A stretch of 23,035 nucleotides of DNA from a virus. The position numbers and the translations under genes are program-made. Below the pieces are notes generated by a model. The model was not told the DNA's origin, ran no database searches, and worked only from the letters and a program-made list of their open reading frames with translations. Below are positions 123-9,560 of this stretch, in pieces. The stretch covers positions 1 to 23,035 of IMG/VR virus record IMGVR_UViG_3300017744_000171; one strand, 5' to 3'. The number at the start of each line of letters is the position of its first letter. Positions within the stretch are counted from its first letter, which is position 1.

Positions 123-906
123 TTATCATTTCCTTTAGTCTATCTACATCAGAGTCTAACTTATATTTAATGTCATCGTCAAGTCTTAAGGCTTGTACTT
201 TTTTACCTGTCCATGTTTCTACTTCTTGCTTGTACGCTAATGTCTTACTCATGGCGTCAGGGTCTAACCCTATGATAACCTTATGAAAATCTCCTATATA
301 CTCCATCTGCGCTGGGCCTAATGACGTACCAAGAATAGCTAAGCCTGTTGTGTTAGGCATAATCTGAGCTACGATGATAGCACTGATCACATCCTCTACA
401 ACAACACACACATCATTAGATGTACCAAGTACACGTTTGAATACAGATGCCTGTCCTGTGTAGCGAAACCATTTAGGTATGGCCCCATCAAGAGCACGGC
501 CTACTGCATCAATTACTACATTCTTATGCTTGATAGGAAAGACTGCACGCCTATCCTTAACGTCATAGAAGATCTCCTCATTAGTTAAACCCCATCGTCC
601 TAAGAACCTATGCAACAACTGATGTTCAGGCTTAGGATTAACTACATACTCAGGGTAAGGCATAGCCTCTATCTCTTTGCGTGTCTGTCTATCTAAACCT
701 TGCATACGCTTACGTATCTCATCAGCTGTCATGCCAGTAGTAACTGCACCACGTATGCTACAGTCTAACTTGTAGCAGTTGTACATCACAGCACCACCAT
801 CTTTAGTAGCAGTAAAAGTATTCATACCATTACAGACAGGACAGTTCATACGGGTTGTCTCACCCTCACTAAGCATAAGATCCTCTACGTATTTCTTAAT
901 GTCCAT
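115..906 (-). CDS. DNA primase, T7 gp4-like (zinc finger plus TOPRIM)
   Basis: Predicted to make RNA primers at the phage replication fork. The 263-aa product has an N-terminal zinc-binding motif (C22, C25, C44, C49; spacing CxxC...CxxxxC) and a TOPRIM core with the acidic motif VEDVISA (E171, D172) and the DxD-type motif GLDPDA (D215, D217). There is no Walker A motif, so no helicase domain is fused to it, unlike T7 gp4; the helicase would be separate and lie off the left edge. I chose ATG 906 over an upstream ATG at 957 because it follows GGTGGAGC and gives the zinc finger a normal leader. It overlaps the end of the HNH gene by 11 nt and the next gene by 8 nt. The motifs are seen in the sequence; the family assignment is from knowledge of phage primases. 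Confidence 0.88.
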   Translation of the reverse strand: MDIKKYVEDLMLSEGETTRMNCPVCNGMNTFTATKDGGAVMYNCYKLDCSIRGAVTTGMTADEIRKRMQGLDRQTRKEIEAMPYPEYVVNPKPEHQLLHRFLGRWGLTNEEIFYDVKDRRAVFPIKHKNVVIDAVGRALDGAIPKWFRYTGQASVFKRVLGTSNDVCVVVEDVISAIIVAQIMPNTTGLAILGTSLGPAQMEYIGDFHKVIIGLDPDAMSKTLAYKQEVETWTGKKVQALRLDDDIKYKLDSDVDRLKEMINE

Positions 907-1369
907 GCTCCACCTCTTCTCTTTTTCTATCGTGTATCTCACTGTGACAATTAGCACAAACTAATATACACTTTCTTATCTCTTCCTTAACAGACTTTCT
1001 TGAGTAGCCGTGCATCTGACTCAAAGGAAACTTTTTAGAATGCATATGATGAAAGTGTAATGCACTTAAACTTTTTTTGTAACCGCAAACTGAGCAACCA
1101 TATATACTTTTATATCTTTTTATAAAAGCCCTGTTTGCTTCAGAGTTTTCTTTCTTTTGTTTAGCCTTTCTTATCTTTTGTTTCTTTAAAGATTCTGGAC
1201 TTAGCCATTGTTCCAGAGGAACTGAACGATCTCCTGTAGCTATGGTTGTTCTGTAGTAGTATTGCATAAAGAAATAACCATCTTCTCTAAGATCACCATG
1301 TCTTAAGGGTAGACCTAGATAGATTACTTCGTCTTGATTTATTAAACTCTTTGCATACTCACTTTTCAT
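896..1369 (-). CDS. HNH endonuclease
   Basis: Predicted HNH nuclease of 157 aa, probably a free-standing homing-type enzyme. The C-terminal half carries a zinc-binding ββα-metal fold signature: CSVC (C92, C95), the histidine cluster LHFHHMH (residues 104-110) and CANCHSEIH (C138, N140, C141, H142, H146). The N-terminal half has the YYYR...EQWLSPES pattern seen in phage-borne HNH proteins and a lysine-rich linker (residues 62-73). It is wedged between the integrase and primase genes, with a GGAAG ribosome-binding site lying in the end of the integrase gene. Such genes are often mobile and not needed by the phage. Some HNH proteins act in packaging, but this one is far from the terminase genes, so that role is unlikely. 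Confidence 0.85.
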   Translation of the reverse strand: MKSEYAKSLINQDEVIYLGLPLRHGDLREDGYFFMQYYYRTTIATGDRSVPLEQWLSPESLKKQKIRKAKQKKENSEANRAFIKRYKSIYGCSVCGYKKSLSALHFHHMHSKKFPLSQMHGYSRKSVKEEIRKCILVCANCHSEIHDRKREEVEHGH

Positions 1370-1371
1370 AC

Positions 1372-2274
1372 TTACTTCTTCCTATTTGCTAGGGCATTAG
1401 TTGCACCTGTAAGTGTGTTAACTAAGTAAGGCTTAACACTTTGTGGATTACTGTGACCACTGACCTGCATAATACCGAAGGCATCAGCACCACCCTCGAC
1501 AAGTTGCGTGATACCAGTGCGTCTTAAGTCCATAGCAGTTATCTCTGGAGGTAGGTTTGCAGCAACCTTAACCTCATTCACTAGCTTGTGTATATCTCCA
1601 CTTGGATACGGCCTGTAGACCCCGTTGTGTGGCTCCACAGAGGGTGCTACGTACTGCTGGAACCCAAAGTCTTTCTGTTGTTCAGTCAACATCTTACACA
1701 AGCTATCATCTATGGGTAACTTTACTTCAGACCTGCGTTTACTTTGTTCTAACACAAGAGTTCTAGCACCTAAGTCTAGATTGTCCCACTTAAGTGTACG
1801 CATATCACCTACACGTTGCGCCCACTCATATGCCATATGTAATATTAAGCCAATGCTACGCCACTTCCATTGGCTGTAAGCTGTATCTAAGAATGTAATA
1901 ACTTGAGCGTCAGTCCAACGCACCTTACGTATATTATCTTTAGTACGCTGGACTAATGCTACAGGGTTAGTGACCAAAGCCTCATGTCTGATAGCTGTAT
2001 TGAGTACAATACTCAGGCAAGTTGTCATGTAGTTAGCTTGTCTCAAGCCTACATCAGTTAGCCATTTGTCATACGCTACGGTGACATGTTTAAATCGTAG
2101 GTCACGCAGTTTAATGTTACCTAACTGCTTATCATTTTGTACTTTTGTTTTGCACACACGCAGTAAGTTGTAGTCGTAATCTTTTTTACTGCGATAAGAC
2201 AGAGCATGGTACTTAGGTGTACGCACATAGAAGTCACACGCTGCTTCTATAGTATGTGTCTCCTTAAGTTCCAT
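1372..2274 (-). CDS. Tyrosine recombinase / phage integrase
   Basis: Predicted site-specific recombinase of 300 aa. An N-terminal SAM-like DNA-binding region (about residues 8-110) is followed by a catalytic domain with R154 (AQRVGDMRTL), K179 (QSKRRSE), the box-II position as DLRR (D249, R252) where H-x-x-R is usual, H274 (VSGHSN) and the nucleophile Y283 (KPYLV). The Asp for His change is tolerated in some active family members. ATG 2274 was chosen: it follows GGAGAAGGATAAC and overlaps the upstream gene by 11 nt; the longer form from 2433 would run through two upstream genes. Its presence suggests the phage can integrate or resolve concatemers, but I see no tRNA-like attachment site nearby. 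It is co-directional with the replication genes. Confidence 0.88.
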   Translation of the reverse strand: MELKETHTIEAACDFYVRTPKYHALSYRSKKDYDYNLLRVCKTKVQNDKQLGNIKLRDLRFKHVTVAYDKWLTDVGLRQANYMTTCLSIVLNTAIRHEALVTNPVALVQRTKDNIRKVRWTDAQVITFLDTAYSQWKWRSIGLILHMAYEWAQRVGDMRTLKWDNLDLGARTLVLEQSKRRSEVKLPIDDSLCKMLTEQQKDFGFQQYVAPSVEPHNGVYRPYPSGDIHKLVNEVKVAANLPPEITAMDLRRTGITQLVEGGADAFGIMQVSGHSNPQSVKPYLVNTLTGATNALANRKK

Positions 2275-2467
2275 TGTTATCCTTCTCCACAAAACAATCC
2301 CTAACCTCATCCACAGATAGTGCACAAGTAAAACCATTATCTTTGAATGTTGCAACAACTGCTGGGCCATCAGGAAGAATATCCCAATACACATGATACC
2401 CACTGCTCTTCCATCTAACAGGCTTACCTGCATCCAATGCTTGTGTTAGTTCTCGTAACTCCATCAT
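2264..2467 (-). CDS. Small conserved phage protein, unknown function
   Basis: The product is 67 aa (or 66 aa from a second adjacent ATG at 2464). The text MELRELTQALDAGKPVRW followed by a β-rich stretch (YHVYWDILPDGPAVVATF) looks like a small globular domain; I have seen similar short proteins in marine phages but know no function. Ribosome-binding site AAGGAG lies 8 nt before ATG 2467. It overlaps the end of the 34-aa gene upstream and the start of the integrase gene, which suggests coupled translation. Confidence 0.75.
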   Translation of the reverse strand: MMELRELTQALDAGKPVRWKSSGYHVYWDILPDGPAVVATFKDNGFTCALSVDEVRDCFVEKDNNGT

Positions 2468-3682: not shown

Positions 3683-3814
3683 TTATTTTCCTTCCAGTTG
3701 GGTTCGTATTTCAGTAAGTAAATCAATGAGTTGTTTGTTGTTCTTCATGGTGGTGTTAGGTAACACCTTCTCACACATGGCGAGGATCTTTAGGTTTAGT
3801 GCGTTTGTAATCAT
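3683..3814 (-). CDS. Small helical protein (43 aa)
   Basis: Encodes MITNALNLKILAMCEKVLPN and then a Lys/Asn/Gln-rich helix ending LLTEIRTQLEGK. Its ATG overlaps the stop of the 91-aa gene (ATGA), and its stop lies 1 nt before the next start, so it fills the gap exactly. No family recognised. Confidence 0.6.
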   Translation of the reverse strand: MITNALNLKILAMCEKVLPNTTMKNNKQLIDLLTEIRTQLEGK

Positions 3815-4086
3815 GCTAGTCCTCCTTCAATTACGAATAGCTTGGATGCTGCTACATCCTTGCGCTTCATTGGTTTAATTAGTTGATAGCGAAAGTCGTG
3901 GTATAAATCAATGTTATAATCAAATAGCTCTACTGTCGGACCGTCCGTCAGTAACTCAAAGTCATACGTAGGGTATGCATCAGTCAATGTACCTATCATT
4001 ATGTTACCTCCTGCCTCTGACCTGCTGTTGGTCAGGCGGCAAGGTAAGTCAACATCATCTAAGTGTACACACAGTTTGTATATCAT
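3811..4086 (-). CDS. Hypothetical protein carrying an in-frame palindrome (91 aa)
   Basis: 91-aa product beginning MIYKLCVHLDDVDLPCRLTN, β-rich in outline. One copy of the 21-bp palindrome (3932-3952) lies inside the frame and is translated as LLTDGPTVEL. The start overlaps the stop of the upstream gene (ATGA). The frame continues normally on both sides of the palindrome, so the element either was tolerated as a surface loop or evolved in place. Function unknown. Confidence 0.72.
   Translation of the reverse strand: MIYKLCVHLDDVDLPCRLTNSRSEAGGNIMIGTLTDAYPTYDFELLTDGPTVELFDYNIDLYHDFRYQLIKPMKRKDVAASKLFVIEGGLA
3932..3952. repeat. 21-bp palindrome copy 1 (inside the 91-aa gene)
   Basis: Arms ACTGTCGGA and TCCGTCAGT around CCG. 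One T:T mismatch in the 9-bp stem. Translated in frame as LLTDGPTVE on the minus strand. Confidence 0.9.
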
Positions 4087-4778: not shown

Positions 4779-5393
4779 CTACATCTCCATGATTGACGTT
4801 ACGTGATACGCTGACACTGCATCACCTGTAGGTAGTGACTTATTCATGCCACCCTTCTCAGCTACATAGTTACACCATGTATCCCACCAGTACTCTGCAC
4901 CTTCAAGGCGGCACAGCTTGACGTACTGGCGTATCTTCTTAAGCCTAAGCTCCGGCTTGATCTTCTTGCTTACTTTCAGTGCCGCCTCAGACAATCCAAG
5001 CATACGAATGTTGTGTCTGTCAAGGCAAGCAACCTCAAAGCCACACATCTGAGCGATGAAGCCAGCCTTCACCATACCTATAGATGGAATACGCATGAAC
5101 AGATCTACTACTGCTTGTGCCCCGTCTATAGTGTCAGTGCCTACTGTCTCCTTGATGTTGAGCATGAGCGTATGCAATTCAACCTTGTGATCAAAGGCAT
5201 AGGTAATACCTTTAGCTTTGGCTTCAGACACCCACTTAGATTTGATGCCGTGTTCTCTGATAGAGATACGCTGAGTGTGCACCCTAGATAAAGGCATGTT
5301 GATCGTACATAGAGTGAACTCTACTATGTCATACATGGCATCGGGGGATGTCGTTGCATACTGAGCGATTAGGTTACAGTCACGTTGATACAT
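4779..5393 (-). CDS. HhH-GPD-like protein, DNA glycosylase fold candidate
   Basis: 204-aa product with a helix-hairpin-helix signature RIPSIGMVKAGF (residues 101-112), followed 12 residues on by CLDRHNIRML, where D125 sits at the place of the catalytic aspartate of the HhH-GPD (endonuclease III/MutY/AlkA) superfamily. The lysine of bifunctional enzymes does not align cleanly (GMVKA against the usual GxKTA), so a monofunctional or purely DNA-binding role is possible. There is no iron-sulfur cysteine cluster at the C-terminus. It could repair, or remove modified bases from, phage or host DNA. ATG 5393 follows AAGGAGAGTACACA and is preceded, 29 nt upstream, by a palindrome copy (leader module). 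Confidence 0.7.
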   Translation of the reverse strand: MYQRDCNLIAQYATTSPDAMYDIVEFTLCTINMPLSRVHTQRISIREHGIKSKWVSEAKAKGITYAFDHKVELHTLMLNIKETVGTDTIDGAQAVVDLFMRIPSIGMVKAGFIAQMCGFEVACLDRHNIRMLGLSEAALKVSKKIKPELRLKKIRQYVKLCRLEGAEYWWDTWCNYVAEKGGMNKSLPTGDAVSAYHVTSIMEM

Positions 5394-5422
5394 TGTGTAC
5401 TCTCCTTGTTGTTGTGTTCTCT

Positions 5423-5443
5423 ACTGTCGGACCATCCGACACT
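5423..5443. repeat. 21-bp palindrome copy 2 (leader of the 204-aa gene)
   Basis: Arms ACTGTCGGA and TCCGACACT around CCA; single mismatch at the second stem position. Lies 29 nt upstream of ATG 5393. Confidence 0.92.
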
Positions 5444-5444
5444 A

Positions 5445-5618
5445 CTACCATTTAATTCCAAACTCTTCGCCATCAGGATCATAGCTAATGGCATCGGCAC
5501 CCACATCTTCTGGGTACTTTTCTTTAAGAATTTTTGTAAGGTCAGATTTATTTTCTGCTTTAATTAAAGCTTGAAACATACCGTCCTCTCTTTCAATTAA
5601 TACTTCATAGAATTCCAT
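5445..5618 (-). CDS. Small hypothetical protein (57 aa)
   Basis: Encodes MEFYEVLIEREDGMFQALIK and a further αβ stretch ending DPDGEEFGIKW; acidic. GGAGATTGATT precedes the ATG, and the upstream gene ends 2 nt earlier. A palindrome copy lies 1 nt beyond its stop. Confidence 0.7.
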   Translation of the reverse strand: MEFYEVLIEREDGMFQALIKAENKSDLTKILKEKYPEDVGADAISYDPDGEEFGIKW

Positions 5619-5620
5619 AA

Positions 5621-5950
5621 TCAATCTCCTTTTTTTGTTAATTCATTTTGTATTGTTAAACCTTTTACTAGCATAGCTTCAGCCTCTCTTGTATCACCTC
5701 GTTTCAAAGTGTCAAGTGACCACGCTACCCAGCTTGCAGCTTGAGGTGATAGTAGTTCAGACGTAGGCTCAACACTAGGCTTAGGCTCAGGCTGTACTTC
5801 TACAGCACCTACCTTGTTGTCATTCAAGAAAGCCATAAGGTTAGCTTTATCTACTGGTACTTCAACTGTACGTCTAACCTTGCCTAGCTGCTTACGTGCA
5901 TCAGCTTGAGTGCCAGCCCATTCGCCTTTGTCATTAGTGTATAGCTTCAT
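5621..5950 (-). CDS. Conserved marine-phage hypothetical protein (109 aa)
   Basis: Starts MKLYTNDKGEWAGTQADARK, an N-terminus I recall from several marine podoviruses. The pattern TQADARKQLGKV...VEVPVDKANLMAFLN (residues 14-43) is followed by a Pro/Glu/Val linker (VEVQPEPKPSVEPTSE) and a C-terminal helical hairpin. Its ATG overlaps the stop of the upstream gene (ATGA). Function unknown. Confidence 0.75.
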   Translation of the reverse strand: MKLYTNDKGEWAGTQADARKQLGKVRRTVEVPVDKANLMAFLNDNKVGAVEVQPEPKPSVEPTSELLSPQAASWVAWSLDTLKRGDTREAEAMLVKGLTIQNELTKKGD

Positions 5951-6210
5951 TTGTTTGCCTTTACGTACTCAGTTGCTGCGTTAATAATCTCAGCTAGATC
6001 CTCAGCTCTTACATAGTGAAAGTAGTCAGTCGTGTACGCTACTGCTTCACTGTGCTTGTATAGTCTAGGAAGATGTATTGACCTTCCTGTCTTCTCATCA
6101 AACAGTGCTACCTCACAAAATGTATCGGCTGAGTATTGCGCTATAGATAAAGTATGATGCTCACCTACTGGTAGCCTGACATTGTTTAAGTGTTGTGTTG
6201 GCATTAACAT
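5947..6210 (-). CDS. Hypothetical protein (87 aa)
   Basis: Begins MLMPTQHLNNVRLPVGEHHT; AAAAGGAG lies 7 nt before the ATG (a second ATG follows two codons on). The C-terminal half looks helical (RAEDLAEIINAATEYVKANK). No known motif. It is coupled to the next gene by a 4-nt overlap. Confidence 0.72.
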   Translation of the reverse strand: MLMPTQHLNNVRLPVGEHHTLSIAQYSADTFCEVALFDEKTGRSIHLPRLYKHSEAVAYTTDYFHYVRAEDLAEIINAATEYVKANK

Positions 6211-6223
6211 TTTAGTTCTCCTT

Positions 6224-6637
6224 TTAATCTACGTGAAGCTCAAGTGATGCTTCAACCATCTGATGCCAACCATTAGGCATACAAACATATACGTTGTTGT
6301 CTAATAGGTTAACAACCAAGTCACCTACTGACATGACAGAGTGTTGCATGAGGTGGGTAGTCGTAATGATACCACTACCATAGTTATTACCTTCATCAAA
6401 TATCTCCTCAAGTCTAGTGGATTCCAGACTTTTCTCAGTAGTAGCGTAGTGCATAAACATAGTAGGTTGGTACAAGCTATACATCAAAGCCCTACGTACT
6501 GTATCTTCTGGCCCATCCTCATCTAGCATAGTCACTGTGTCATAGTACGCTGTAGCTAAAGGCCTGTTACGATTTTCGTTTATGATGTCCTTAAGTTCGT
6601 TATCCATAGGACGCTGATATATAAGATAGGATTGCAT
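6224..6637 (-). CDS. Hypothetical protein with palindrome leader (137 aa)
   Basis: Begins MQSYLIYQRPMDNELKDIIN; mixed αβ, acidic. ATG 6637 follows TGGAGAC; a palindrome copy at 6660-6680 lies 22 nt upstream, matching the leader arrangement of the 59-aa gene further upstream. The palindrome also overlaps the 3' end of the upstream 66-aa gene. No family recognised. Confidence 0.72.
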   Translation of the reverse strand: MQSYLIYQRPMDNELKDIINENRNRPLATAYYDTVTMLDEDGPEDTVRRALMYSLYQPTMFMHYATTEKSLESTRLEEIFDEGNNYGSGIITTTHLMQHSVMSVGDLVVNLLDNNVYVCMPNGWHQMVEASLELHVD

Positions 6638-6641
6638 CGTG

Positions 6642-6842
6642 TTAGTCTCCAGTGTTTCTAGTGTCGGACCATCCGACAGTAGCAGTTAATTTGTTAGTGA
6701 CCCCATAAGACAGATGTCGCCTTCGATTGTCAATAGATTTACTACCTCGCAAATCATACAGCATTTGCCTATGCCATACACTACGCCACACCTTATCAGC
6801 ACGTAGTTTTATGCGATTGCGTTTAGTTATTCCTAGAGGCAT
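6642..6842 (-). CDS. Very basic small protein ending in a palindrome copy (66 aa)
   Basis: Arg/Lys-rich product starting MPLGITKRNRIKLRADKVWR, with a further RRRH patch. ATG 6842 shares its A with the stop TGA of the preceding gene (TGATG), favouring this start over an in-frame ATG at 6854. The palindrome at 6660-6680 is translated near the C-terminus as TVGWSDTR. The last ten or so codons may be a by-product of the leader of the next gene. DNA binding is possible from charge alone. Confidence 0.6.
   Translation of the reverse strand: MPLGITKRNRIKLRADKVWRSVWHRQMLYDLRGSKSIDNRRRHLSYGVTNKLTATVGWSDTRNTGD
6660..6680. repeat. 21-bp palindrome copy 3 (leader of the 137-aa gene)
   Basis: Arms AGTGTCGGA and TCCGACAGT around CCA; single mismatch. 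Lies 22 nt upstream of ATG 6637 and within the last codons of the 66-aa gene. Confidence 0.92.
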
Positions 6843-7126
6843 CAGATACCCCATGACTTTTCTATGCCATCAAGATACTCGAATGCATCAGGCTCAAGTT
6901 CAGACCTAACCTTTTGTAAACACTCAATTAATTCATCAAGAGTGGCACCATAGAGATGGATAGAATACTCTGTACCATACTCATCAGGTACAATAGCAAC
7001 CTCCTGCACCTTAGTATCCACCCACTTGTCACCATCATACTTCTTATGTTGAGCAATAGATATTTCTTTGCCTCTATGTTTTATATGAATGTTGTTCATA
7101 TCTAATTCATTATCAAAAGCACCCAT
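6842..7126 (-). CDS. Hypothetical protein (94 aa)
   Basis: Starts MGAFDNELDMNNIHIKHRGK; β-rich first half and a helical, acidic second half (TLDELIECLQKVRSELEPDA). Start and previous stop overlap as TAATG, with GGAGAAGTATA before it. Function unknown. Confidence 0.75.
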   Translation of the reverse strand: MGAFDNELDMNNIHIKHRGKEISIAQHKKYDGDKWVDTKVQEVAIVPDEYGTEYSIHLYGATLDELIECLQKVRSELEPDAFEYLDGIEKSWGI

Positions 7127-7584
7127 TATACTTCTCCTATCTCTAAATCAAAGTCACTAGCACAGCTAAGTAGTGCTGGCTTGATGAACTCATACCATGA
7201 AATGTTTTCGCTTTCATGGTTACGCCAATCACTAGCGTTCCTATCGTGTGTACTTTGTAGTTTAGCCAACAGCAAATACTGATCGTCGGTTAATTTATCT
7301 TGACCAAAAGCTTTTGATAATACTTCTGTTACTCTGGTATCATAATAGCCAATCTCAAACTCGCTAATGCTGGCCTCTTCTAATGCATCACCTTCCAAGC
7401 TTTCATCATAGAGTTCATCAGGTATGAACGCACCTACGACACACTTGTTATCATTACCATCTCTATCAACTCCACGATAGACACACTGCGTACCACCACA
7501 GTCATCAATCATACTATCCATAGAAGGCTCACCCATATTAGCAAAATGCTTGTGGGCTTTATTAAATATATTTTGTAGTTCCAT
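7126..7584 (-). CDS. Conserved phage protein with CxYRG...CxxGxxIPDE pattern (152 aa)
   Basis: 152-aa acidic protein. Residues about 30-60 contain GGTQCVYRG, NKCVVGAFIPDELYD and an acidic EGDALEE segment, a pattern I recall in unrelated phages as a protein of unknown function. Two cysteines flank the YRG turn. Its leader is one of the clearest palindrome modules: palindrome 7614-7634, A-rich spacer, TAGGAGAGTAACG, ATG. The spacer and ribosome-binding site closely match the leader of the 204-aa glycosylase-like gene. Function unknown. Confidence 0.78.
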   Translation of the reverse strand: MELQNIFNKAHKHFANMGEPSMDSMIDDCGGTQCVYRGVDRDGNDNKCVVGAFIPDELYDESLEGDALEEASISEFEIGYYDTRVTEVLSKAFGQDKLTDDQYLLLAKLQSTHDRNASDWRNHESENISWYEFIKPALLSCASDFDLEIGEV

Positions 7585-7613
7585 CGTTACTCTCCTAGTT
7601 GTTGTTTGTTTCT

Positions 7614-7634
7614 ACTGTCGGACCATCCGACACT
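7614..7634. repeat. 21-bp palindrome copy 4 (leader of the 152-aa gene)
   Basis: Identical to copy 2 (arms ACTGTCGGA / TCCGACACT, centre CCA). Lies 29 nt upstream of ATG 7584 and overlaps the stop of the 59-aa gene by 2 nt. Confidence 0.92.
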
Positions 7635-7812
7635 ACATATCGAATCCCATAGCTGAACAATAGTCAGTGACGGACTCATGCTCATCCCTACTATGCTCAC
7701 ACTTAGGACACAAGGCTACATCACCATATGGATCTGTGGTTCCACACCTCACATCATAAGGCTTGTAGTCGTAGCCACTTGGTATTTGATAAGTCACTTG
7801 ATTGTTACACAT
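7633..7812 (-). CDS. Small zinc-ribbon-like protein (59 aa)
   Basis: Starts MCNNQVTYQIPSGYDYKPYD and contains CG (C23), CPKC (C35, C38) and a final Cys in TDYC, so four cysteines could bind a metal. ATG 7812 was chosen over the longer frame from 7863 because TGGAGAGTATAAA precedes it and the extra upstream residues are only the translated palindrome at 7835-7855. Possible role in host takeover through protein or nucleic-acid binding; unproven. Confidence 0.7.
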   Translation of the reverse strand: MCNNQVTYQIPSGYDYKPYDVRCGTTDPYGDVALCPKCEHSRDEHESVTDYCSAMGFDM

Positions 7813-7834
7813 TTTATACTCTCCATTTTTTCTT

Positions 7835-7855
7835 AGTGTCGGACGATCCGTCAGT
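7835..7855. repeat. 21-bp palindrome copy 5 (leader of the 59-aa gene)
   Basis: Arms AGTGTCGGA and TCCGTCAGT around CGA; two mismatches, the least perfect copy. Lies 22 nt upstream of ATG 7812. Confidence 0.9.
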
Positions 7856-7889
7856 AAGATCATCCTAGTTTCAAATTGTCAATAGCTTG

Positions 7890-8385: not shown

Positions 8386-8407
8386 AAAAGCCCCGCCTAA
8401 GCGGAGC
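8386..8407 (-). terminator. Rho-independent terminator after the 188-aa gene
   Basis: In the leftward transcript GCTCCGC - TTAG - GCGGGGC forms a 7-bp stem with one G:U pair and a 4-nt loop, followed by UUUU. It lies 26 nt past the stop of the 188-aa gene and before the ribosome-binding site of the 58-aa gene. The T run is short (four), so it may be leaky. Confidence 0.72.
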
Positions 8408-8433
8408 CTGTGACTGTGTTATGTGAGTTAGGC

Positions 8434-9000
8434 TTAGGCCTTCATCGCCTTGTTGAATGCCGCCTTAGTAATGCCGTGTTCCTGCATCTGAGCCTTGACG
8501 AATTTCGCAAGTTCATCAGCTGTTACAGCCTTCTTACTGTCGGACGGTCCGTCGGTAGCCTTAGTCTCAGGCTTAGCCTTGCCCTTGGATACATTGCCAG
8601 CAGACTTGGGTGCCTTGGGCTTGTCGAGTGCCTTGATCCGCTTACGGATGGCTGAGACGCCTAGGCTGTCAAGTTCGCCTTTGTTGTTGAGCTTTTGGAT
8701 TTTAGCCCAATTTGAGGCCACGAAAACTGTGTCGCTACGGTCCTGCCTAGATATGCCAGCAAGAGGAGACTTGGCAAGCATTTGGCCGAAGAGCTTGTCC
8801 GATTTGTACATAGCACGATGCTGGATCAAGATTTGGCCTAGCTCGTTGAAGCAATCAAGCATGGACGTTTGCAGTAGGTACATCTGATCGTAGATGGCTG
8901 CACCATGCTCAAGGCTGGCTGTCGGTGTGTACTCATCCTTGCCAACACGAATTACGTTGTCGTTTGAAAGCGTAGCTGTTTTTGCGTTTGGTTTAGTCAT
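8434..9000 (-). CDS. Lead gene of the leftward arm, unknown (188 aa)
   Basis: Starts MTKPNAKTATLSNDNVIRVG. Residues about 35-125 are helical (FNELGQILIQHRAMYKSDKL...), reminiscent of phage proteins that pair a helical DUF3102-like region with a DNA-binding tail, but I cannot assign a family. A Lys/Ala/Pro-rich linker (about 127-160) includes a palindrome copy translated as ATDGPSDSKK. The C-terminus (DELAKFVKAQMQEHGITKAA) is a short helical module. First leftward gene, with ACGGAG upstream, its own promoter candidate and its own terminator, so it is probably transcribed early and separately, as expected of a regulator or takeover protein (inference). More GC-rich than its neighbours. Confidence 0.78.
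   Translation of the reverse strand: MTKPNAKTATLSNDNVIRVGKDEYTPTASLEHGAAIYDQMYLLQTSMLDCFNELGQILIQHRAMYKSDKLFGQMLAKSPLAGISRQDRSDTVFVASNWAKIQKLNNKGELDSLGVSAIRKRIKALDKPKAPKSAGNVSKGKAKPETKATDGPSDSKKAVTADELAKFVKAQMQEHGITKAAFNKAMKA
8536..8556. repeat. 21-bp palindrome copy 6 (inside the 188-aa gene)
   Basis: Arms ACTGTCGGA and TCCGTCGGT around CGG; one T:T mismatch and one G:T pair. Translated in frame as ATDGPSDSK in a Lys/Pro-rich linker. Confidence 0.9.
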
Positions 9001-9047: not shown

Positions 9048-9076
9048 GTTCTGCCAGCTGGTCAAAAAAATGTCAA
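9048..9076 (-). promoter_or_regulatory. Candidate leftward promoter
   Basis: On the minus strand TTGACA (9071-9076) is followed 17 nt later by CAGAAC (9048-9053). The -35 is perfect and the -10 is poor, which is not rare in alphaproteobacterial promoters. It is the only good -35 upstream of the 188-aa gene, about 48 nt before its ATG. Confidence 0.45.
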
Positions 9077-9115
9077 CACCTTTTCCTGTGCATTATGCGT
9101 AGGGAAAAGCGGGCT

Positions 9116-9136
9116 ACTGTCGGACGGTCCGTCAGT
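9116..9136. repeat. 21-bp palindrome copy 7 (control region)
   Basis: Arms ACTGTCGGA and TCCGTCAGT around CGG. Lies 40 nt upstream of the leftward -35 box and just left of the 18-bp direct repeats. Confidence 0.92.
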
Positions 9137-9141
9137 AACGA

Positions 9142-9195
9142 GAACGAATCAGGAACATCTCTGGTTTGCTGGTGTTGGAACGAATCAGGAACATC
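9142..9195. repeat. 18-bp direct repeat, 36-bp period
   Basis: GAACGAATCAGGAACATC occurs perfectly at 9142-9159 and 9178-9195, so the start-to-start distance is exactly 36 bp. It sits just right of a palindrome copy in the divergent control region. It could be an iteron, a regulator site or part of an origin. Confidence 0.85.
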
Positions 9196-9196
9196 G

Positions 9197-9560
9197 CCTC
9201 GTGTAGCGTGGGTGTGTGCGTTACGTATGGGTGGGTGTGCCTGTGTGCATGAACATTAGGTGGGTATGGGTGTAGATGTGCATGAAAGCGTGACATTCCC
9301 GCCACACCTGCATATGCGTGTGAAAATGCGTGTATATGTGCGTAAGCGGATGACTAATCCGTATGCAAACCCCATAAAAACAACGACTTAGCCCAGCCTT
9401 GCGCCCAGATGTGCGTGCACAGGCTCATTATGCGAGGCCTTGCGGGGGCCACCACCCCATGCTACGTATACGTATATGTACTCACACACAGAAGTGGTTT
9501 TTAGTTTTGGCTTTTTTGTCATATATACACGCAAAGGTACACACAACGCCCGGAAAATAG
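9197..9560. other. Non-coding GTG/TGCGTG-rich tract of the control region
   Basis: No convincing gene. The left half (to about 9420) is strongly GT-rich on the plus strand, with many GTGTGCG, ATGCGTG and GGGTG words and a 10-bp direct repeat TGTGCATGAA at 9244-9253 and 9277-9286. Further right are a GC-rich patch (9437-9457) and the palindromic TACGTATACGTA (9463-9474). The asymmetric strand composition resembles origin or recombination-prone DNA but proves nothing. Confidence 0.6.

What the first reader, a model, noticed from the sequence alone, without database searches (positions are those of the whole stretch)
5393..7855. Shared leader module: palindrome, A-rich spacer, GGAGA, ATG at exactly 22 or 29 nt
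Four genes (starts 5393, 6637, 7584, 7812) have a palindrome copy whose end is 29, 22, 29 and 22 nt before the ATG. In the 29-nt pair the spacer and ribosome-binding site are also nearly the same (AGAAACAAACAACAACTAGG against AGAGAACACAACAACAAGG, then AGAGTA). Fixed spacing to the start codon points to action at mRNA level or at a promoter just upstream, for example a 5' stabilising hairpin, an RNase site or a translational operator bound by a phage protein. With the terminator at 8386 isolating the lead gene, these modules may also be where downstream transcription restarts.
Basis: partly seen in the sequence, partly recalled or inferred. Interest (0 to 1): 0.8.

Follow-up and report, generated by a model that had tools for sequence, protein, structure and literature searches.

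The report
Dispersed phage operators with matching regulator
A group of marine phages scatters a near-palindromic DNA signal through its early genes, often just before gene starts; the signal's sequence changes in step with the first gene of the operon, so it looks like the docking site of a phage-encoded gene regulator rather than an RNA hairpin.

Summary
In detail: seven ~23-bp near-palindromes (core CGGAYNRTCCG; 7 found, 0.04 expected), four of them just before SD-ATG with gaps of 21/28 nt. The mRNA-level reading is not supported. Sites of this family also lie upstream of the lead promoter's -35 box (31 of 31 loci measured, centre about -73 to -88) and inside reading frames, where one was gained by in-register substitutions. 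Arms pair no better with their own partner than with other copies' arms (4.14 vs 4.32 of 6), and G-U mismatches (24) equal A-C mismatches (25). Leader spacing in relatives runs 20-47 nt, so 22/29 is not a rule. Outer arms are lineage-specific and change together. The sites track the lead gene (window 8434-9000), the only early gene shared by all carriers. In one natural experiment, codons 1-110 of the lead gene diverged and all five sites examined switched their centre from 3 to 4 nt. HMO-2011 and CRP-1/CRP-345 carry analogous sets with other sequences around their lead genes. Best reading: dyad operators of a phage-encoded regulator, probably the lead protein, working like mycobacteriophage stoperators. 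Binding and roadblock action are inferred, not shown.

The parts
9115..9137 (.). Site 1: TACTGTCGGACGGTCCGTCAGTA, upstream of the lead-gene promoter (centre about -85)
9071..9076 (-). TTGACA (-35-like) of the lead-gene promoter
   Evidence: a TTGACA lies 36-52 bp after the site centre in all 31 loci measured
8434..9000 (-). Lead gene (188 aa), candidate cognate DNA-binding regulator; unknown family
8535..8557 (.). Site 2: inside the lead gene, in the predicted disordered linker
   Evidence: CRP-1 and CRP-345 also carry a site inside their lead gene
8386..8409 (-). Intrinsic terminator-like hairpin after the lead gene
7834..7856 (.). Site 3: leader of gene 7633-7812 (21 nt before ATG)
7877..7882 (-). 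TTGACA upstream of site 3 (site centre would lie near +1)
7613..7635 (.). Site 4: leader of gene 7126-7584 (28 nt before ATG)
6659..6681 (.). Site 5: leader of gene 6224-6637 (21 nt before ATG)
6728..6733 (-). TTGACA upstream of site 5 (site centre would lie near +27)
5422..5444 (.). Site 6: leader of gene 4779-5393 (28 nt before ATG)
3931..3953. Site 7: inside ORF 3811-4086, in frame; present at the orthologous codons in the lineages aligned except the L132 type

Best explanation
The palindromes are a dispersed set of double-stranded-DNA operators (half-site TANNNT-CGGAY around a 3-nt centre) for a dimeric sequence-specific regulator encoded by the phage, most probably the lead gene at 8434-9000. 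One site upstream of the lead promoter and one inside the lead gene would autoregulate the regulator. Sites in the leaders of downstream early genes, placed after secondary promoters or straight after the lead-gene terminator, would block initiation or read-through elongation, as stoperators do. The early operon could then be silenced while the lead gene, cut off by its terminator, stays expressed, which suits phages that carry an integrase. SHOWN here: the site family, its positions, its confinement to the early region, concerted lineage-specific change, co-occurrence with the lead gene, and absence of RNA-type covariation. INFERRED: protein binding, dimerisation, identity of the binder, and repression or roadblock as the direction of action.
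For: Copy number above chance. Sites confined to the early region in records up to 52 kb. One set of outer arms per lineage on a constant core. Site upstream of the -35 box in all 31 lead-gene loci measured. In-gene sites: one gained by substitutions without indels, with Leu to Arg; another kept in frame while its arms follow each lineage. Own arms pair no better than other copies' arms (4.14 vs 4.32, P 0.001 in the opposite direction) and GU 24, AC 25. The lead gene is the only early gene shared by all carriers; L137, L156, L158, CRP-2 and CRP-603 lack both. L173/L175 against L132/L171: lead codons 1-110 70% identical, codons 111-197 98.9%; all five sites examined change centre from 3 to 4 nt within conserved flanks, up to about 0.9 kb from the lead start. 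Motif distance follows lead N-terminal distance (rho 0.33, Mantel P < 0.001; C-terminal 0.23). TTGACA enriched upstream of leader sites. HMO-2011 and CRP-1/CRP-345 carry analogous dispersed palindromes around their lead genes.
Against: The lead protein has no Pfam, PHROG or PDB relative and no recognised DNA-binding fold; its model is moderate (pLDDT 77, pTM 0.53). Another phage or host protein could be the binder. The Mantel correlation is modest, not corrected for shared ancestry, and broken by the window group and L183, which share arms with only 39% lead identity. The natural experiment is one event seen in two partial contigs. The lead-promoter site at about -80 is not a classic repressor position. 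No binding, expression or lysogeny data exist.
Confidence: 0.62

Rival explanations
1. RNA-level element: the palindrome folds as a hairpin in the 5' leader and stabilises, processes or translationally controls the mRNA.
For: Four of seven window copies lie just before SD-ATG; in some relatives the SD abuts the arm. A 7-bp stem with a triloop can form.
Against: The site upstream of the -35 box would not be in the lead mRNA. In-gene copies. No arm covariation, GU 24 and AC 25. Ordinary folding energy. Variable spacing.
Confidence: 0.1
2. Dispersed dyad operators, but for another protein (a host regulator or another phage gene); the lead gene is only one of its targets.
For: All dsDNA arguments apply equally; the lead protein has no recognised DNA-binding domain.
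Against: The lead gene is the only early gene shared by all carriers. Its N-terminal half and the site centre changed together. Very different motifs in related phages argue against one host factor. No lead-gene relative was confirmed in bacterial genomes, so the gene is not a captured host regulator of known species.
Confidence: 0.17
3. Activator or antiterminator sites: the lead protein loads at its promoter-upstream site and at downstream sites to let RNA polymerase pass terminators.
For: Site at about -73 to -88 of the lead promoter; the first leader site often follows the lead-gene terminator closely.
Against: The first leader sites lie after, not before, the terminator, and leader sites are 20-47 nt before an ATG, which leaves little room for an activated promoter downstream.
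Confidence: 0.08
4. Mobile or selfish palindromic repeat (REP/RPE-like) without a regulatory role.
For: Multi-copy, partly inside genes in flexible regions.
Against: An in-gene copy arose by in-register substitution; arms and centre change in concert at conserved places; copies are clustered in the early region of records up to 52 kb.
Confidence: 0.03

Closest known systems
Stoperators of Cluster A mycobacteriophages (L5, Bxb1, TipsytheTRex; PMC6550527, PMC9283540)
   Same: Many dispersed sites in short intergenic spaces plus promoter-linked operators; site motif differs by lineage and tracks one phage protein; site near the regulator gene.
   Different: L5 sites are 13-bp asymmetric, bound by a monomer with an HTH and a second DNA-binding domain, more than 20 per genome. 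Here sites are ~23-bp dyads, 5-8 per record, only in the early region, some inside genes; the candidate protein has no recognised HTH; no binding or silencing data.
SPBRE / MrpR of Bacillus phage SPbeta (PMC10516654)
   Same: A dispersed repeat first recognised in silico, later shown to be the site of the master repressor.
   Different: 15-bp motif in promoter regions; MrpR has a tyrosine-recombinase fold, whereas the lead protein is small, helical and unrelated by sequence search.
Start-associated sequences (SAS/ESAS) of Cluster K mycobacteriophages (PMC3203893)
   Same: Repeated elements near start codons of a subset of genes; ESAS are inverted repeats upstream of the start; possible binding sites.
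   Different: SAS is GGGATAGGAGCCC near the start, proposed for translation initiation; here sites also lie upstream of a promoter and within genes.
Palindromes of HMO-2011 (GTCCG-N4-CGGAC) and CRP-1/CRP-345 (GTCCAA-NN-TTGGAC), found here
   Same: Upstream of the lead gene and in leaders of the early operon; CRP-1/345 also inside the lead gene.
   Different: Different core sequence and centre length; CRP-1/345 also have copies in the integrase gene and further downstream; homology of the CRP-1 lead protein to the window's is not significant.

Membership tests
Cluster A stoperator system | Many dispersed copies of one motif, largely in short intergenic spaces, plus promoter-linked operators | tested here: met
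   sites at the lead promoter, leaders and in genes of the early region
Cluster A stoperator system | 13-bp asymmetric site oriented with transcription | tested here: not met
   ~23-bp near-palindrome
Cluster A stoperator system | Motif differs by lineage together with the phage repressor | tested here: met
   (candidate protein; binding unproven)
Cluster A stoperator system | Repressor with HTH plus Stoperator domain | tested here: not met
   No Pfam or PDB match for the lead protein
Cluster A stoperator system | Bound protein blocks transcription elongation | not testable with these tools
   needs binding and transcription assays
Cluster K SAS/ESAS | 13-bp GGGATAGGAGCCC next to start codons | tested here: not met
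   Motif is CGGAYNRTCCG-based; window sites also at 9115 (upstream of a promoter), 8535 and 3931 (in genes)
RNA leader hairpin (boxB-, RNase- or operator-type) | Compensatory covariation between arms of the same copy | tested here: not met
   own-arm pairing below cross-copy pairing; GU 24, AC 25
RNA leader hairpin (boxB-, RNase- or operator-type) | Element lies within the transcript | tested here: not met
   the lead site lies upstream of the -35-like box in 31 of 31 loci (leader copies themselves may be transcribed)
RNA leader hairpin (known Rfam family) | Match to an Rfam model | tested here: not met
   none in the window
SPBRE / MrpR | Regulator of tyrosine-recombinase fold | tested here: not met
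   Lead protein has no integrase-family match and is a 188-aa helical protein
Mobile palindromic repeats (REP/RPE) | Copies present or absent as insertions | tested here: not met
   in-gene copy gained by substitution in register
Dimeric-regulator operator (general) | Dyad site at promoters, with site and regulator changing together | tested here: met
Dimeric-regulator operator (general) | Direct binding of the regulator | not testable with these tools
   needs EMSA, ChIP or DAP-seq

The most novel reading that the evidence does not exclude
The lead proteins of these marine phages are a new family of DNA-binding regulators without a recognised DNA-binding fold. Each lineage uses its own palindromic site code, written at dispersed places (promoter-upstream, in the lead gene, in leaders, within other genes), and the code, down to the number of bases at the dyad centre, is rewritten in concert when the N-terminal half of the regulator changes. 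This would be a fast-evolving immunity or silencing code of HMO-2011-type phages, analogous to stoperators but independent of them.
Probability: 0.42. Interest if true: 0.75.

Novelty: new variant of a known kind. Interest (0 to 1): 0.6.

Why it matters
HMO-2011-type phages are abundant in the ocean (PMC6918029, PMC9038755), and a term search of the papers on them found no transcription regulator described. This work names a candidate regulator and its sites, including in cultured phages (HMO-2011, CRP-1, CRP-345), so lysogeny, immunity and early-gene control become directly testable. The dispersed sites also give a natural series on how a regulator and all its sites change together, including a switch in half-site spacing.

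Tried and rejected
RNA hairpin, translational operator or processing site: rejected on arm-pairing and GU/AC tests, position upstream of the -35 box, in-gene copies, spacing and Rfam. N4-type hairpin promoters: considered because of the triloop; no RNA polymerase gene is annotated in the stretches of CRP-2, HMO-2011 and CRP-603 read, so not pursued. Mobile element: rejected. Host regulon: weakened; the genome-contig scan with the lead alignment confirmed no relative. Fold and profile searches for the lead protein gave nothing firm; two weak DUF3102 matches in the viral library are only a lead. A de novo search for similar palindrome sets in CRP-2, CRP-603, CRP-3, CRP-212, HTVC033P and ctYwJ313 found none above shuffles, so the system is not universal in the group; CRP-13 has three close tandem copies of another palindrome. 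Most single matches of the viral contigs pattern scans are probably chance.

Full report
What is there. The window (IMG/VR record, 23,035 bases) belongs to the HMO-2011-type marine podoviruses: its terminase is 73-81% identical to those of Roseobacter phages CRP-2, CRP-207 and CRP-603 and of Puniceispirillum phage HMO-2011. The early operon runs on the minus strand from about 9.1 kb to the left end. Seven near-palindromes of 23 bp lie at 3931, 5422, 6659, 7613, 7834, 8535 and 9115; the pattern GWCGGAYSRTCCGWC matches 7 times against 0.04 in shuffles. Four sit in leaders, 21 or 28 nt before the ATG. One lies upstream of the lead-gene promoter, one inside the lead gene and one inside ORF 3811-4086.

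Relatives. Searches with gene 4779-5393 and with the lead protein gave about 60 contigs. In carriers the 11-nt core CGGA-YNR-TCCG stays constant, while the outer arms are one set per lineage: TACTGT (window), CGTTGT, TATCTT, TACTCT and others. Each record has 5-8 copies where complete enough, and in records up to 52 kb they are clustered in the early region. Orthologous places are kept across lineages: upstream of the lead promoter, in leaders, and inside the homologue of ORF 3811-4086. Leader distances are not locked: 78 leaders give centre-to-ATG 20-47 nt.

DNA, not RNA. (1) In all 31 loci where both could be located, window included, the lead site lies upstream of a TTGACA, with its centre 36-52 bp before it, so it would not be in the lead mRNA. 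(2) In 88 distinct copies the arms of one copy pair slightly worse with each other (4.14 of 6 outer positions) than with arms of other copies from the same genome (4.32; permutation P 0.001 for the lower value), and G-U and A-C mismatches are about equal (24, 25). An RNA stem would show the opposite on both counts. (3) Copies occur inside genes. In the L139 lineage one was gained in the homologue of gene 4779-5393 without any indel, turning GLSE into GRSED. (4) Leader hairpins fold no better than shuffles and Rfam has no match. Related sequences inflate the permutation test, so I rely on the direction of the result, not on its P value.

The partner. The lead gene (188 aa) is the only early gene shared by all carriers compared. 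It is absent, like the sites, from L137, L156 and L158 and from the isolates CRP-2 and CRP-603. A natural experiment ties the two together: between L132/L171 and L173/L175 the lead gene is 70% identical over codons 1-110 but 98.9% identical over codons 111-197. All five sites examined in L173/L175 have a 4-nt centre (CTGA or CAGA) where L132/L171 have 3 nt, although the sequence next to the sites is conserved (nearly identical at the first leader), up to about 0.9 kb from the lead start. Motif distance also follows N-terminal lead distance (rho 0.33, Mantel P < 0.001) more than C-terminal distance (0.23), without correction for shared ancestry. The predicted structure is helical with a disordered linker (residues 130-155) and a C-terminal helical pair. 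No PDB, Pfam or PHROG relative was found.

Promoters and terminators. TTGACA lies 25-85 bp upstream of 25 of 63 leader sites (4.7 +- 2.0 expected), which would place site centres from about +1 to +43. -10 boxes were not modelled, so these promoters are only likely. A terminator-like hairpin follows the lead gene in 20 of 25 loci, often just before the first leader site.

Other phages. HMO-2011 carries GTCCG-N4-CGGAC exactly five times in 55 kb, all within 4 kb around its lead gene and four of them in leaders. Its lead protein is a distant relative (HMM E 1.4e-6; hhalign 90%). CRP-1 and CRP-345 carry GTCCAA-NN-TTGGAC upstream of the lead gene, inside it, in leaders, and also in the integrase gene and further downstream. 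Their lead proteins are 52% identical to each other, but the link to the window's is not significant.

How it most likely works. The anatomy fits a phage-encoded dimeric regulator that controls its own gene and silences downstream early genes at dispersed sites, by blocking secondary promoters or elongating polymerase. The nearest experimentally known systems are the stoperators of Cluster A mycobacteriophages (PMC6550527, PMC9283540), SPBRE/MrpR of SPbeta (PMC10516654) and, for the start-associated placement, SAS/ESAS (PMC3203893). It works like a stoperator system but is not filed as one: the sites are dyads and the protein lacks the known domains. Binding, dimerisation and direction of control are inference. 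In the papers on the group that I searched by term (PMC6918029, PMC9038755, PMC12629253) the word promoter does not occur, and palindromes are not mentioned in the two where I searched for them.

Noticed in passing
9139-9205: Direct repeats around AACGAATCAGGAACAT (TGATTCGTT on the minus strand) upstream of the lead promoter, recurring in several relatives; perhaps sites of a second regulator.
   Followed up: no
L206/L207 (HMO-2011) and L210 (CRP-1): A TTTAGTGAA(A)GT-TATAT element precedes leader palindromes in HMO-2011 (near 30 and 1215) and CRP-1 (near 1020); promoter-like.
   Followed up: no
6642-6854 (-): Short ORF whose DNA holds a TTGACA before the next leader site; TTGACA also occurs at this kind of place in other lineages although the peptides are little alike.
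   Followed up: partly
all palindrome copies: Arms of one copy match each other less than arms of different copies, chiefly at the third arm position; perfect palindromes seem to be avoided.
   Followed up: partly
L219/L213 (CRP-13): Three copies of a TAGTTTAAT-type palindrome about 31 bp apart.
   Followed up: no
896-1369 (-) and 1372-2433 (-): HNH endonuclease-like gene next to a tyrosine integrase gene.
   Followed up: no
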